A stretch of DNA of 37,125 bases from a virus, in IMG/VR virus record IMGVR_UViG_3300030098_003854, positions 6,863-43,987 of that record. One strand, 5' to 3'. Position numbers and translations under genes: made by a program. Positions 28,525 through 33,937 of this stretch are shown here, piece by piece. Below the pieces are notes generated by a model that was given only the letters and a program-made list of their open reading frames with translations, was not told where the DNA came from and did not search any database. Position 1 is the stretch's first letter. Every line of letters begins with the position of its first letter.

Positions 28525-28827
28525 ATGGATAAAGTATCACTATCGTTAAAGGATACCAAATTTAAATTAGTTGAAAGGAGTAGAGGACGTATGAAAATTC
28601 AAATTAAGTTTTCCAAAGAAGAAGCCGAGGGCTTTAAGAACTTCTGTAGGTTAAAGCCGCCAGAGCTTGAGGACGATACGTTCTACAAGCAAATATTCTT
28701 TGCTGGCTGCAATGCCATGACTGAGCAGATTCAGTCTCTTGTTAATGCCCACAAGGCTTCCCAAGAGGAGGGAACTCAAGAAAAGGAAAAAGATGAGCAG
28801 ACCGAAGAACAACTTCAAGACAAGTAA
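28525..28827 (+). CDS. Small protein with acidic Gln/Glu tail, unknown function
   Basis: 100 residues from ATG 28525. The alternative ATG 28591 (78 residues) has AAAGGAG ten bases upstream, while 28525 has no ribosome site and lies five bases after a TATAAT, so it would be leaderless. The core KIQIKFSKEEAEGFKNF, then a stretch with FYKQIFFAGCNAMTEQI, looks like a small helical protein type common near replication genes in T4-like marine phages. The tail (about 78-100) is Glu/Gln/Lys-rich. I cannot assign a function. Its 3' end overlaps the next gene by 35 bases. Confidence 0.65.
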   Translation: MDKVSLSLKDTKFKLVERSRGRMKIQIKFSKEEAEGFKNFCRLKPPELEDDTFYKQIFFAGCNAMTEQIQSLVNAHKASQEEGTQEKEKDEQTEEQLQDK

Positions 28828-29164
28828 AATTTACAACTCTAAGCATTTAGAGTCTGTAGTTAAGTCAAATATTGAGAGTAAGCAAAACTCTTATTACTTA
28901 ATCACTAATAGTTGGGACAAAGCTTGCAACTACTTCAACGATAGGTTACCTACGGAGGGTGATGTATATTTGAATGTTGTAGACATCTTTAATGTGCCTA
29001 ATGCTTTGGATGTTTTTAGATCATCTATTAAGGCGCATAAGGAGACCATTTCGACATCATGCTTATCTCAGTACGAGCAGCTTCCAATGTTGGTGGTAAT
29101 CCACAAGTCTTTCCCCAGGGTCGTTTCCTATAACGGATCGGTAGGCGCAGAGATTGGGATTTAA
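28793..29164 (+). CDS. Unknown protein beside late sigma factor
   Basis: 123 residues from ATG 28793, chosen because AAGGA lies five bases upstream and because the reading frame before it is only the antiparallel-like Lys/Arg shadow of the previous gene. It shows an alpha/beta pattern: NSYYLITNS, GDVYLNVVDIFNV and LPMLVVIHKSFPRVVSYNGS look like beta strands alternating with helices, vaguely thioredoxin- or Rossmann-like. No catalytic motif. It ends on a TTAA shared with the stop of the convergent sigma gene. The partner gp33 of gp55 would be expected nearby, but I see no similarity to it. Confidence 0.6.
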   Translation: MSRPKNNFKTSKIYNSKHLESVVKSNIESKQNSYYLITNSWDKACNYFNDRLPTEGDVYLNVVDIFNVPNALDVFRSSIKAHKETISTSCLSQYEQLPMLVVIHKSFPRVVSYNGSVGAEIGI

Positions 29165-29514
29165 ATAGAGCTTGGATCTTTTGGGATGCCCAGTTTGTGG
29201 TTCCTATAAGATTCAAGCTTTTCGTTGTACTTTTTATTTTTAGAGTACAACAGCCGTAGATTATTTAGAATCACGGTGGTAAAGTAATTAAATGCTTGCC
29301 CAGAGTCTCTATTGAAGTTCTTTAATACTTTGAGTATAAGTAGGAAGCACTCTTGTTTTGCCTCCTCATGATCCACGTTGAACTTAAAAGACAACATTAG
29401 ACGGTTAATCAGAGTGTCGAACATGCCAAACAGTTCATTTTCATGTGACCTATCCCCATGTTTGAATTGTTGTATTAGCGTCTCAAACCTTTTATTGTCG
29501 ATATAGTGACTCAC
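29161..29514 (-). CDS. gp55: Late-transcription sigma factor (T4 gp55-like), short
   Basis: 117 residues; T4 gp55 is 185. It starts with GTG, with AGG three bases upstream. Residues 30-100 read as sigma region 2: a helix with LINRLMLSFKFN, then EEAKQECFLLILKVLKNFN (51-69), then AFNYFTTVILNNLRLLYSKNKK (74-95), matching the core-binding and -10 recognition helices seen in gp55 (HNFDE, [20 protein letters not shown]). There is no region 4, as expected for a factor that reads TATAAATA with clamp help. It would direct transcription of the structural genes from the TATAAATA site found at 12974. The missing C-terminal part may affect clamp or flap binding. Confidence 0.72.
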   Translation of the reverse strand: MSHYIDNKRFETLIQQFKHGDRSHENELFGMFDTLINRLMLSFKFNVDHEEAKQECFLLILKVLKNFNRDSGQAFNYFTTVILNNLRLLYSKNKKYNEKLESYRNHKLGIPKDPSSI

Positions 29515-29519
29515 TTACC

Positions 29520-29525
29520 TATGAT
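29520..29525 (+). promoter_or_regulatory. Possible -10 element TATGAT before polymerase genes
   Basis: TATGAT lies in the 17-base gap between the divergent sigma gene and the UDG/exonuclease gene. A start seven bases downstream would fall on the A of ATG 29532. CTATGATAG resembles CTATAATAG at 28513. The minus strand reads TATCAT, possibly for the sigma gene. Confidence 0.35.
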
Positions 29526-29531
29526 AGTCTC

Positions 29532-30566
29532 ATGCCACAACTAAGCTTTAAGGGTTTAAACTCCAAGTGTGAGGGGTGCCCAGCCCTTAGCATGAATCTT
29601 CCAACTCATACTATTTTGGATTACGAGTATAAGGATGCTCCCGTCGATATCCTATTTATCTCGGATTCTGCTAAAATGTTTGAGGGTGAGTTCACTGCGT
29701 TTCGCCCACAGGAATACAATGTTATTCAGCGTGAGCTTGCCAGATTCTCACATGATTGGGAGGTTGGCTACACAACTGCTGTGAAGTGTCCTAACATTAC
29801 TTCTGAAAACCTCAGCACCGGCATTAAGAAATCATGTAAGATTCACTTACATGACACTATCGATCACTACAAGCCTCGTCTTGTCTTTGCCTGTGGCAAG
29901 GTCGCTACCACTCTTTTGTATGGTAAAGCAAAGGAAGAAAGTAAAATTCGTGGTAAGGTAGATACGTTATTCACCGAATCCAAAACGCAGTTCCAGGTAG
30001 TGCCTATAATTCACCCGTTCCAGGTCGTAGCAGAGCCCAAGAACGCCTATCTTTTTCGTACTGACCTGGAGAACGCTTTAAATAATGAGCTTTTAGGGAA
30101 GGCTACAGACGCTCAGGTAGACCATACTCTTGCCATGAGCATAGGGGAACTGGATGAGGTAAGCGGTGAGTTTATCGATACCGAGATGGATCTTGCTGTA
30201 GATATTGAGACCACTGGTCTTAATTTCCTTGAGGATACAATTCACACAGTATCCATGACGCTCGTTAATCGTGATACTGGAGATCTCGGTAGGACTTTAG
30301 TACTGCCCATTGATCACAAAGAAGCAAAACTTGGCTACAAGGTAAAGGGTGCTTTCATGCGATTCGTCTGTCAGGCTATGGCAAATAAAAATAATAGAAA
30401 GATATTGCAGAACGCAGGCTTCGACCTTAAGTTCTTGAAACGGTATGGAGTCGAGGACGTATATAATGTGTATGATACGAAGCTACTTCAGCATCTGTAT
30501 AAAGAGGATGTTCCTAAGTCGCTGGCTGATCTCGTTTATTACTACTTTCCAGAAGAAAAGTTCTAA
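29532..30566 (+). CDS. UDG-like domain fused to first part of DNA polymerase 3'-5' exonuclease
   Basis: 344 residues. The N-terminal part (1-185) is of the family-4 uracil-DNA glycosylase type: Cys13-x2-Cys16, Cys86 and Cys102 fit the four [4Fe-4S] ligands, and IHPF (160-163) stands at the usual HPS/HPA motif. The catalytic GEAPG motif is replaced by SDSAK (44-48), so glycosylase activity is doubtful. Residues 218-344 begin a DnaQ/Pol I type exonuclease, with Exo I D224-I-E226 and Exo II N294 to D298. The Exo III aspartate lies in the next gene. No ribosome site precedes the ATG, but losing the start would lose Cys13/16. The stop overlaps the next ATG (TAATG). UDG-like domains ahead of PolA enzymes are known in other phages (SPO1 type, from memory). 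Confidence 0.82.
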   Translation: MPQLSFKGLNSKCEGCPALSMNLPTHTILDYEYKDAPVDILFISDSAKMFEGEFTAFRPQEYNVIQRELARFSHDWEVGYTTAVKCPNITSENLSTGIKKSCKIHLHDTIDHYKPRLVFACGKVATTLLYGKAKEESKIRGKVDTLFTESKTQFQVVPIIHPFQVVAEPKNAYLFRTDLENALNNELLGKATDAQVDHTLAMSIGELDEVSGEFIDTEMDLAVDIETTGLNFLEDTIHTVSMTLVNRDTGDLGRTLVLPIDHKEAKLGYKVKGAFMRFVCQAMANKNNRKILQNAGFDLKFLKRYGVEDVYNVYDTKLLQHLYKEDVPKSLADLVYYYFPEEKF

Positions 30567-31090
30567 TGCTCACAGTTGAAGGTAAGAAGTTCGATTGGAA
30601 GAACATCCCATTGATTCAATGCGTTGAGGGTAATGCAAAAGATACCTACGCCACCGCAAAGGTGTATGTAAAACTACTCGAAGAGGTCCGTCAGAAGAAG
30701 TTAGAGCACCTATACGAGAAGTTAATCGCACCTCTGACAGTTGCCTTTCGTGATATGGAGTTTGAAGGATTGCTTATCGATGAGGATAAGCTCAATGAGT
30801 TGGATCAGCAACTTCAAGACAAGCTTAAACTAGCGGATATTGCTTTACGAGAGGCTGCTGGTTTGGATGAGGATGCCAATCTTAATTCCACTAATCAGCT
30901 TGTGAAAATTATCTACTCATTTGAGAAGAATGATGAAGGTGAATGGATTCAAGTTGACGACTTCGGTCTTGGATTGTATCCTTTCGAGTTTACTAAAAAG
31001 GGCGCACCTTCTACCAACGAAGAGACGCTGACTAAGGTTAAAGCCATGGTCGAAGAAGAGTTCATAGCGAGAGGTTTGAAGGTTGAATAA
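30566..31090 (+). CDS. DNA polymerase PolA family, middle part (end of exonuclease and thumb)
   Basis: 174 residues, TAATG-coupled to the UDG/exonuclease gene. NAKDTYAT (23-30) is the Exo III region with Asp26. GLLIDEDKL (68-76) matches the G-x-x-(I/V)-D block that starts the polymerase part of Pol I. NLNSTNQL (105-112) matches the NLNSPKQL element of the thumb, and PSTNEETL (148-155) is the P-S-T-x-E-x-x-L element. In ordinary Pol I proteins these are continuous with the exonuclease before and the palm/fingers after. The three products probably reassemble into one enzyme. Frame changes and overlapping stop/start signals occur at both ends. Confidence 0.85.
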   Translation: MLTVEGKKFDWKNIPLIQCVEGNAKDTYATAKVYVKLLEEVRQKKLEHLYEKLIAPLTVAFRDMEFEGLLIDEDKLNELDQQLQDKLKLADIALREAAGLDEDANLNSTNQLVKIIYSFEKNDEGEWIQVDDFGLGLYPFEFTKKGAPSTNEETLTKVKAMVEEEFIARGLKVE

Positions 31091-32147
31091 CGAAGAAGTA
31101 AACATTGCAAAGGCAGTCCTGAACAACATGTCGAATGACCAGTTGAAGGCTGCTAAGAAGTTCTTTGATCGGTTCTCGGAGTATAAGAAGCTGACCAAGC
31201 TTCACTCTGTTTACATTGAAGGTGCTCGCACCGCACTACAGAACACTGGTAACAGTAGAATGTATGTGAAGTATAACATCGATGGTACGGTTACAGGGCG
31301 CATCTCAAACTCGGGTGCCAACGTTGGTAGGAAGAAGACTGATAAGATTGGTGTGTCTTTCCACACTCTCCCTCGTGAGTCGCTTGATGTAAACATTCGT
31401 GATTACGTGATAGCTCCAGAGGGTCACGACTTTATCACGATCGACATGAAAGCGATGGAGCTAAGAGTTCTCGCTCATGTTGCTAATGAGGAAAACATGA
31501 TTCACGCCTTTAAATCTGGCGTGGACTTGCACAGCTATTCTGCTGGGTTGACCTTCAATAAGGACCCCAAGGATGTGAGTAAACTTGAACGACAGATCGC
31601 AAAAGAAGTGAGCTTTTTAACAGTGTATGGTGGAACTGCATACACTCTCGCTTCAAAGCGTAATATTCCCGAAGATCGCGCTGAGGAGATTATCAATAGT
31701 TGGCTTGCGGCTTTTCCAGGTGTAGGTCGCTATATGAACACTATTGACGAATACATTAAACAGTTTGGTTACGCTAAGACCATCTTCGGTCGTTATCGCC
31801 ACCTCCCTAATGTCCGCTCACCATTCAAGGGCGTTCGTCGTGAGGCGTTCCGACAAGGTTTGAACTTTACAATTCAATCTTCTGCCAGTGATATTCTACT
31901 TTGCGGTATGCTTGGCGTAATCGAAAAGCTCAAAGGCATGAAGGCTAAGGTTGTAGCCACGGTTCACGACTCAATTGAACTCATAGCCCCTAAAGAAGAG
32001 ACTAGGAGGGTCGTTGAAATTGTTAGCGACGAGCTTGAAAACTACCACTATCTAAAAGAAAACTTCAACATTCACTTGAAGGTTCCACTGGGTGTTGATG
32101 TTGAAGTTGGTTCTAGCTTTGGTAATGGTGTCGAGTATGAACTTTAA
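31083..32147 (+). CDS. DNA polymerase PolA family, catalytic palm and fingers
   Basis: 354 residues from TTG 31083, which has AGAGG eight bases upstream and overlaps the previous gene by eight bases; ATG 31128 is a later alternative. TGRISNSG (71-78) matches TGRLSS. Motif A is ITIDMKAMELRVLAHV with Asp121, in place of the usual D-Y-S-Q-I-E-L-R. Motif B has R170, K174, F178, Y182, G183. Motif C is VHDS with Asp296, Ser replacing the usual Glu. NFTIQSSASDI (261-271) corresponds to N-x-P-I-Q-G-x-A-A-D. Both metal-binding aspartates are present, so the enzyme should be active. Phe178 predicts ordinary dideoxynucleotide discrimination. T4 itself uses a PolB enzyme. Confidence 0.92.
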   Translation: MNNEEVNIAKAVLNNMSNDQLKAAKKFFDRFSEYKKLTKLHSVYIEGARTALQNTGNSRMYVKYNIDGTVTGRISNSGANVGRKKTDKIGVSFHTLPRESLDVNIRDYVIAPEGHDFITIDMKAMELRVLAHVANEENMIHAFKSGVDLHSYSAGLTFNKDPKDVSKLERQIAKEVSFLTVYGGTAYTLASKRNIPEDRAEEIINSWLAAFPGVGRYMNTIDEYIKQFGYAKTIFGRYRHLPNVRSPFKGVRREAFRQGLNFTIQSSASDILLCGMLGVIEKLKGMKAKVVATVHDSIELIAPKEETRRVVEIVSDELENYHYLKENFNIHLKVPLGVDVEVGSSFGNGVEYEL

Positions 32148-32642: not shown

Positions 32643-32702
32643 TTACTTTTGTAAAGCCTGATCGCCTGCTTGACGAGCCTCCTGAAGTATTTTACTCTTC
32701 AT
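32643..32702 (-). CDS. Possible 19-residue micropeptide gene
   Basis: On the minus strand an ATG overlaps the TGA of the preceding gene (ATGA) and has AGGAG seven bases upstream, a better ribosome site than many genes here. It encodes MKSKILQEARQAGDQALQK, which would be an amphipathic basic helix, and ends 14 bases before the lipoprotein ATG. It could be a real micropeptide, a coupling leader for the lipoprotein, or chance. Confidence 0.35.
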   Translation of the reverse strand: MKSKILQEARQAGDQALQK

Positions 32703-33937
32703 TTGGGGACTCCTGCTCCAAATTTATCATCATCATTTGCTGCCTTTCGTGAGATTCGATGACCTATTGCCTTTAGCAAGTCTTTACGAAGTGTATCGTT
32801 TATAGGCGTGCCTTTTTTAGATAAGTTGTTCATATCACCTATAGTAACGCCTACAGGGGGCGTTTGATCGGAAGACTGTCTCTGACGCGTGGTTCGCGGC
32901 AGGGCTTTAAGGGGAGACCGTATCCGCTTGTTGCTTGGCGGTATTAACTTATTGAAATCTCTCTCCGCAGCCCTCTGTCCCCTAGCTTGCCTCATTCTGG
33001 AGACTTTCTTCCCAAGTGAGTATCCTGCCTTATCTATCGCTGGTTTAGCAAACGCACCAACCTTATCCGCTGTGTAATCGGCTGCTTTTCTAAGACCTCC
33101 CAAACCTTGACGAAGTCTGGTCCCTAGCCTCGTCCCAATTGGCGTATCGCCGCTTAAGCCCTTGTAGAAGTTTTTAGCTCCTTGGTAGCTACCCCTTGCA
33201 ACATCCGTAGCTACTCTAGCACCAGCGTCGTAAACACCACGGCCAATACCCTTAGCTAATTTAGATCCGGCATCATATATGCCTCTTTTCAAACCCGATC
33301 TAAAGGAGGGTCTAGCTGGAATTTTAATCGCAGCAGGGTTGACCTTTTCATCAAACCTTCGTATGACAATCTCTTCGAAGTCTTCGGCAGACTCATTAAG
33401 GGGGTTGTTAATTTCTTCAAAAATAATAGGGGTCAAGACACTCTCCATGAAGAGAGCATCGTCGATCATTTCGTCTGTTATCTGGTCAATACTATCAATC
33501 GCACACTCTAAAAGACTTGCAACTCTATCATTTCGACCTTCAAGAAATAGCTCAAAAGCTACCGCGTTGTGGATAGATTCAGACATCCTGTCAAGAGTAT
33601 TAGGGTTAACATCAGTGGAGCAATTCCACTTACGCAGAGCCTTGTTGATACGGCTATCGGGATTTCTACGAGTCTTGGCAGAGGTCAGACGTTTTTTCAT
33701 TCCACCCATACGGGCACAAAAAGATTTACGACGGTTGGCCGATTTGCTGTCCTTTTTAAGTTTTGAGGGCTCTGTAGTCACAGCAGTTTTAAGTTTGGAC
33801 CCAGGGTTAGCAGCCCTGTAGCGTTTTACGCCTTTGGACGTGAGTCCACCCTCTTTGGATTTGTCCCCACTTTTGACTGAGAACTTCTTAGGCATCTTGC
33901 CTTTTTCTAATAATGCTTCCTTAAACCTACCTACCAT
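32699..33937 (-). CDS. Basic protein with DUF6321-like N-terminal domain and YDAG repeats
   Basis: 412 residues from ATG 33937 (AGGAG 12 bases upstream), or 398 from ATG 33895, which has AAAGG five bases upstream and reads MPKKFSVKSG. The N-terminal domain (about 29-106) has GGLTSKGVKRYR, SFCARMGGMKKRLTSAKTRR, DSRINKALRKWNC. I recognise this as a widespread phage module (DUF6321 in my memory) with conserved Cys74 and Cys106 and unknown function. A central acidic helical part (115-195) follows, then RGIYDAGSKLA (218-228) and RGVYDAGARVA (233-243), an internal repeat, and an Arg/Lys-rich end. A DNA-binding or packaged role is inferred from charge. It is divergent from ThyX. Confidence 0.75.
   Translation of the reverse strand: MVGRFKEALLEKGKMPKKFSVKSGDKSKEGGLTSKGVKRYRAANPGSKLKTAVTTEPSKLKKDSKSANRRKSFCARMGGMKKRLTSAKTRRNPDSRINKALRKWNCSTDVNPNTLDRMSESIHNAVAFELFLEGRNDRVASLLECAIDSIDQITDEMIDDALFMESVLTPIIFEEINNPLNESAEDFEEIVIRRFDEKVNPAAIKIPARPSFRSGLKRGIYDAGSKLAKGIGRGVYDAGARVATDVARGSYQGAKNFYKGLSGDTPIGTRLGTRLRQGLGGLRKAADYTADKVGAFAKPAIDKAGYSLGKKVSRMRQARGQRAAERDFNKLIPPSNKRIRSPLKALPRTTRQRQSSDQTPPVGVTIGDMNNLSKKGTPINDTLRKDLLKAIGHRISRKAANDDDKFGAGVPK

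What the first reader, a model, noticed from the sequence alone, without database searches (positions are those of the whole stretch)
29532..32147. Replicative polymerase split into three overlapping genes, one split inside the exonuclease domain
Joined end to end, the products of 29532, 30566 and 31083 reproduce one Pol I-type enzyme. Exo I and II lie in the first, Exo III and the thumb in the second, motifs A, B and C in the third. Both joins use overlapping stop/start signals (TAATG at 30564; TTG start eight bases before the stop at 31083) and change frame. A two-part PolA split is known from RM378-like phages (from memory), but a break between Exo II and Exo III, giving three pieces, is new to me.
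Basis: partly seen in the sequence, partly recalled or inferred. Interest (0 to 1): 0.85.

Follow-up and report, generated by a model that had tools for sequence, protein, structure and literature searches.

The report
DNA polymerase in three genes
A large, uncultured group of bacterial viruses makes its DNA-copying enzyme as three separate proteins instead of one, with one cut running through the proofreading site, which raises the question of how and why a copying machine works when built from loose pieces.

Summary
Confirmed and extended. ORFs A (29532-30566), B (30566-31090) and C (31083-32147) tile one family-A DNA polymerase. Cut 1 lies between Exo II and Exo III. Cut 2 lies inside the thumb, not after it. 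The split is neither a sequencing error nor a programmed frameshift: 127 distinct IMG/VR loci carry B and C, and none fuses A/B or B/C. Start codons at the joins are kept while the surrounding residues change, and the relative reading frame varies between loci. In 34 of 114 measurable loci other DNA lies between A and B. Two clades (B about 35% identical) share both cut sites and form one group (100/100 support), so the split is probably old. The genes are under purifying selection, and no second polymerase was found on ten long contigs. Fused single-gene relatives keep the Exo III tyrosine; the split forms have glycine. Most likely A, B and C assemble into a heterotrimer whose exonuclease site is built from A and B; assembly itself is inferred. 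Naturally split phage polymerases are known. RM378's, however, is family B, and MEP401's PolA is cut elsewhere. I found no published three-piece PolA.

The parts
29532..30566 (+). Gene A: UDG-like domain plus the first part of the 3'-5' exonuclease domain (344 aa)
   Evidence: Pfam UDG 7.9e-07 and DNA_pol_A_exo1 8.2e-11; AF2 model pLDDT 89.7; fold matches family-4 UDG and PolA/DEDD exonucleases
29559..30092 (+). UDG-like Fe-S-type domain in A (residues 10-187); Cys13, 16, 86, 102 invariant
30195..30218 (+). Exo I (A-V-D-I-E-T-T-G, D224/E226)
   Evidence: invariant D and E in 57 sequences
30411..30425 (+). Exo II (N-A-G-F-D, D298)
   Evidence: invariant D in 57 sequences
30564..30568 (+). Join 1, TAATG stop/start overlap
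   Evidence: same +2 offset in 75 loci
30566..31090 (+). Gene B: Exo III plus the first part of the thumb (174 aa)
   Evidence: profile of B matches Klenow fragment 2.5e-16 over chain residues 159-294; NCBIfam PolA 446-585; AF2 pLDDT 82
30629..30643 (+). Exo III, G-N-A-K-D: Tyr replaced by Gly22, Asp26 kept
   Evidence: alignments with fused relatives and Klenow Y497; G in 120 of 127 loci
31070..31074 (+). Shine-Dalgarno-like AGAGG, 8 nt before the C start
   Evidence: such sites before C in 97 of 125 loci against 12% at internal start-like codons
31083..31090 (+). Join 2, TTG start overlapping the B stop by 8 nt
   Evidence: start codon varies TTG/GTG/ATG at the same place; -5 offset in 80 loci
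31083..32147 (+). Gene C: end of the thumb, palm and fingers (354 aa)
   Evidence: Pfam DNA_pol_A 2.3e-72, positions 60-380 of 381
31434..31466 (+). Motif A (ITIDMKAMELR)
31590..31631 (+). Motif B (RQIAKEVSFLTVYG), Phe at the 762-equivalent position
31956..31973 (+). Motif C (TVHDSI)

Best explanation
The phage's family-A DNA polymerase descends from a single UDG-like/exonuclease/polymerase protein whose gene was cut twice. Each cut lies in a loop: one within the exonuclease domain between Exo II and Exo III, one within the thumb. The three products are translated separately, by stop/start coupling where the genes touch, and assemble non-covalently into one enzyme. B is the bridge: it gives its Exo III aspartate to complete the metal site begun by Exo I and II in A, and it gives the first part of the thumb to complete the polymerase in C. 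Shown: the gene structure, conservation of both cuts, a pattern that fits a single origin in the sampled tree, independent genes, purifying selection. Inferred: assembly, the composite exonuclease site, and the replicative role.
For: The products tile one PolA model, and concatenated they align end to end with fused phage enzymes, with both joins at nearly the same place in two divergent clades. No fused A/B or B/C in 127 distinct loci. Genes or other DNA between A and B in 34 of 114 measurable loci, and in L192 between both pairs. Start codons kept while residues change. Shine-Dalgarno enrichment before C and B. dN/dS medians 0.03-0.06. Split clades together 100/100 in the tree. No PolB or DnaE on ten contigs of 44-112 kb, and one PolA hit each. 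The catalytic carboxylates D224, E226, D298 (A) and D26 (B) are invariant in the aligned sets. A folds confidently as UDG-like plus exonuclease fold; B resembles PolA thumbs. Precedent: T7 RNA polymerase works when divided into four co-expressed fragments (PMC4299498).
Against: No biochemical or complex-level evidence. Foldseek E-values for B alone are weak (best 0.027, TM 0.46). The Exo III tyrosine is lost, so proofreading chemistry may be altered or weak. The contigs are fragments, so a second polymerase elsewhere in the genome is not excluded. dS is near saturation, so dN/dS values are rough, and only the pairs that could be estimated count.
Confidence: 0.85

Rival explanations
1. Sequencing or assembly errors broke one continuous gene at two points.
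For: The window is metagenomic, and frames -1 then +1 restore the original frame.
Against: Same joins in 127 distinct loci from many samples, with start codons conserved, and whole genes between pieces in some.
Confidence: 0.01
2. Programmed ribosomal frameshifting produces one fused protein from overlapping frames.
For: Overlapping genes with -1 and +1 offsets in the window.
Against: The relative frame differs between loci (A to B 87/15/12, B to C 108/17/2); L032 and L036 change frame at one join; 34 loci have more than 100 nt between A and B; real start codons and Shine-Dalgarno sites are conserved.
Confidence: 0.04
3. The pieces are rejoined by protein or RNA splicing (split intein or trans-splicing intron).
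For: Introns and inteins are known in phage polymerase genes (PMC10580990, PMC6892783); an HNH gene lies just upstream of A in L115.
Against: No extra sequence at the joins for an intein; no intein domain; no Rfam match in the window or in eight loci with inserts; in most loci the genes touch or overlap.
Confidence: 0.02
4. A decayed polymerase gene: the pieces are relics or serve another role, and the phage uses the host's polymerase or one elsewhere in its genome.
For: The Exo III tyrosine is lost; contigs are incomplete.
Against: Low dN/dS, invariant catalytic residues, no second polymerase found.
Confidence: 0.06

Closest known systems
Single-gene UDG-exonuclease-PolA of phages (PaBG gp205, PMC7412058; LysYB1 WAB25010, PMBT14 AUM59762, ctfzr933 UOF77006)
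   Same: Same order of parts: UDG-like, exonuclease, polymerase
   Different: One ORF; all five fused relatives aligned keep the Exo III tyrosine; about 30% identity or less to this lineage
Methylophilales phage MEP401/402 split PolA (PMC10580990)
   Same: Phage PolA encoded by two ORFs, marine phages
   Different: One cut, just before motif A, with a small ORF between; exonuclease and thumb intact in one piece; the authors suspect an intron
Rhodothermus phage RM378 polymerase
   Same: Exonuclease and polymerase on separate genes in a T4-like myovirus
   Different: Family B motifs, cut at the domain boundary, genes far apart (p024 and p092)
Split PolIII alpha subunit of jumbo phages (PMC7824862)
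   Same: Phage polymerase catalytic module in two proteins thought to reconstitute an enzyme
   Different: Family C, two pieces, distantly located genes
Engineered four-fragment T7 RNA polymerase (PMC4299498)
   Same: A single-chain polymerase working as co-expressed fragments
   Different: Artificial, RNA polymerase, different cut sites

Membership tests
Family A DNA polymerase | Palm/fingers motifs A, B, C | tested here: met
   Pfam 2.3e-72, aligned motifs
Family A DNA polymerase | DEDD 3'-5' exonuclease carboxylates | tested here: met
   D224, E226, D298 in A; D26 in B
Family A DNA polymerase | Exo III tyrosine (Klenow Y497), usual in proofreading members but not essential to membership | tested here: not met
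   Gly in 120 of 127 loci
Family A DNA polymerase | DNA polymerase activity | not testable with these tools
   No experiment
Single-gene UDG-exonuclease-PolA (PaBG type) | All domains on one polypeptide | tested here: not met
   Three ORFs, none fused in 127 loci
Family 4 uracil-DNA glycosylase (A, N-terminal half) | Fold and four Fe-S cysteines | tested here: met
   Fold match E 2.7e-07 to 4zby; C13, C16, C86, C102 invariant. Iron binding itself not tested
Family 4 uracil-DNA glycosylase (A, N-terminal half) | GEAPG-type catalytic motif | tested here: not met
   Replaced by SDS/SDxxK; the fused ctfzr933 has GEAPG
MEP401-type split PolA | Cut just before motif A with an ORF between | tested here: not met
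   Cuts lie elsewhere
RM378-type split polymerase | Family B, cut at the exonuclease/polymerase boundary | tested here: not met
   Family A here; profiles do not match RM378
Programmed-frameshift gene | Fixed relative frame with overlapping ORFs | tested here: not met
   Variable frames, intervening genes
Split intein or intron-interrupted gene | Intein domain or intron RNA at the joins | tested here: not met
   No Pfam intein hit, no Rfam hit, no extra sequence

The most novel reading that the evidence does not exclude
A natural heterotrimeric family-A replicase, kept through the divergence of two large phage clades, with an exonuclease active site shared by two polypeptides. B would be an exchangeable bridging subunit, so that the balance of proofreading and synthesis could be set by subunit supply.
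Probability: 0.35. Interest if true: 0.88.

Novelty: new variant of a known kind. Interest (0 to 1): 0.72.

Why it matters
Pol I-type enzymes are textbook single-chain polymerases. A widespread environmental lineage that keeps its apparently only polymerase in three pieces, both cuts falling inside domains and one separating catalytic residues of one active site, makes directly testable whether and why a replicase can be a multi-subunit assembly of subdomains. It also gives naturally optimised split sites for protein engineering. Practically, annotation pipelines may call such genes truncated or miss B, which found no match in 50,697 phage records.

Tried and rejected
Sequencing error, frameshifting, introns/inteins and gene decay were tested and rejected or marked unlikely (see rivals). 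RM378 was fetched as the supposed precedent; its annotated 'similar to DNA polymerase I' gene p012 did not look like a 3'-5' exonuclease piece (by eye it resembles a 5'-3' nuclease, not tested), and p025 is not a B-like piece; its polymerase proved to be family B. A genome-contig scan for hosts or prophages gave only ordinary distant PolA genes. tblastn of B against known phages gave nothing for the window and only distant fused enzymes for clade 2. Literature searches found no three-piece PolA; the library covers open-access papers only, so absence there is weak evidence. A two-piece intermediate was looked for in all fetched loci and not found.

Full report
What is there. The window is part of a 44-kb virus record of a contractile-tailed phage: a T4-type major head protein, head protease, tail sheath and tail tube lie upstream of the polymerase region, and the head protein's nearest known relatives are T4-like cyanophages at about 33% identity. 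Three same-strand ORFs follow: A 29532-30566 (344 aa), B 30566-31090 (174 aa) and C 31083-32147 (354 aa). A stops and B starts at TAATG; C starts with TTG 5 nt before the B stop codon, an 8-nt overlap. Frames shift by -1 and then +1.

Parts. Pfam puts a UDG domain and the front of a PolA 3'-5' exonuclease in A, a weak PolA start in B, and PolA positions 60-380 in C. Against one NCBIfam PolA model (889 positions) the pieces cover 287-426, 446-585 and 576-885, so nothing substantial is missing between them. A profile of B aligns with Klenow fragment from just before Exo III to the middle of the thumb. The AF2 model of A (pLDDT 89.7) matches family-4 UDGs and PolA/DEDD exonucleases. B alone (pLDDT 82) resembles Taq, Bst and Klenow thumbs, but with weak statistics.

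Not an error. A scan of viral contigs with C returned 38 loci; the 37 that hold all three genes show the same split, A being 52-96% identical to the window. At join 1 the ATG is kept; in L020 the stop changed to TAG and the start to GTG, so both signals still work; in L032 the signal became TAATATG. At join 2 the start is TTG, GTG or ATG at the same place, while the B residue that the same bases encode varies (V, S, N, I and others); in L036 it moved to +5. Selection therefore appears to keep a start codon, not a frame.

An old split. Scans with alignments of B and C reached a second clade, with B 32-41% identical to the window's B, with the same three genes. In some members other genes lie between the pieces: L192 has a 2OG-Fe(II) oxygenase between A and B and another ORF between B and C. 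Across all loci, 127 distinct cases with B and C (122 with A) contain no A/B or B/C fusion. The A-stop to B-start offset is +2 in 75 loci and above 100 nt in 34 of 114; relative frames are spread 87/15/12 and 108/17/2. Shine-Dalgarno-like sites precede C in 97 of 125 and touching B in 35 of 80, against 12% at internal start-like codons. The deduplication used identical B DNA, so near-identical loci still count separately.

Origin. Fused relatives exist: single ORFs of 804-891 aa in ctuI7215, a Desulfofustis phage, ctfzr933, LysYB1 and PMBT14. In a joint alignment both joins fall at nearly the same columns in both split clades, in loops relative to the fused forms. In a tree of the polymerase part the two split clades form one group at 100/100, apart from 18 fused enzymes. 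With the root unknown this fits one origin of the split. PaBG shows that UDG-exonuclease-polymerase in one gene is known (PMC7412058).

Function. dN/dS medians are 0.06 (A), 0.06 (B) and 0.03 (C) over the pairs that could be estimated, with dS near saturation. Ten long contigs (44-112 kb, both clades) each have one PolA and no PolB or DnaE hit. The exonuclease carboxylates are invariant but distributed, three in A and one in B. The Exo III tyrosine, present in the fused relatives and in Klenow (Y497), is glycine in 120 of 127 split loci; six did not match the simple motif search and one had proline. The UDG-like domain keeps four cysteines but not the GEAPG-type motif, so I expect a structural or DNA-binding role rather than glycosylase activity (inference). 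The simplest mechanism is non-covalent assembly with B as bridge. Divided T7 RNA polymerase shows that single-chain polymerases can work in pieces (PMC4299498).

Comparison with what is known. MEP401-type OM43 phages have a two-piece PolA cut just before motif A (PMC10580990). Jumbo phages have a two-piece PolIII alpha (PMC7824862). A broad survey of phage polymerases (PMC11348598) and a virioplankton PolA study (PMC6302109) showed no three-piece PolA in the passages searched. I therefore call this a new variant of a known kind, with the caveat that only open-access papers were searched.

Noticed in passing
window 29161-29514 (-) and 29519-29527: A 117-aa protein divergent from gene A resembles sigma-70 region 2 (weak in the window, E 0.016; E 0.00014 for its counterpart in L347). 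The palindrome CTATNATAG sits just before the starts at 28525 and 29532, between divergent genes; two exact copies against 0.75 expected by chance. Possibly a phage sigma factor and its promoter.
   Followed up: partly
L158, L159, L177, L179, L188, L193, L195, upstream of B: Where DNA separates A from B, an AT-rich CTATTATATAG-like motif lies directly before the B start and Shine-Dalgarno sites are rare (6 of 34), as if B had gained its own promoter.
   Followed up: no
window 29532-30092: The UDG-like domain has lost the GEAPG-type motif seen in fused ctfzr933 while keeping four cysteines.
   Followed up: partly
L115:4514-4996: An HNH endonuclease gene lies directly before gene A; homing elements are a possible cause of gene splits.
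   Followed up: no
L192:4366-4923 and L192:5452-6078: A 2OG-Fe(II) oxygenase gene and a DUF6445 gene (described by Pfam as unknown) are inserted between the polymerase pieces.
   Followed up: partly
window 32702-33937 (-): A 412-aa basic protein with DUF6321 near its N terminus, overlapping several PHROGs of unknown function.
   Followed up: no
L347 (IMGVR_UViG_2716884398_000001, 130,604 bases): The contig name differs from the metagenome series, so this member may come from an isolate or single cell; its neighbourhood includes SbcC/D-like, ribonucleotide reductase-like and ferredoxin-like ORFs by eye.
   Followed up: no
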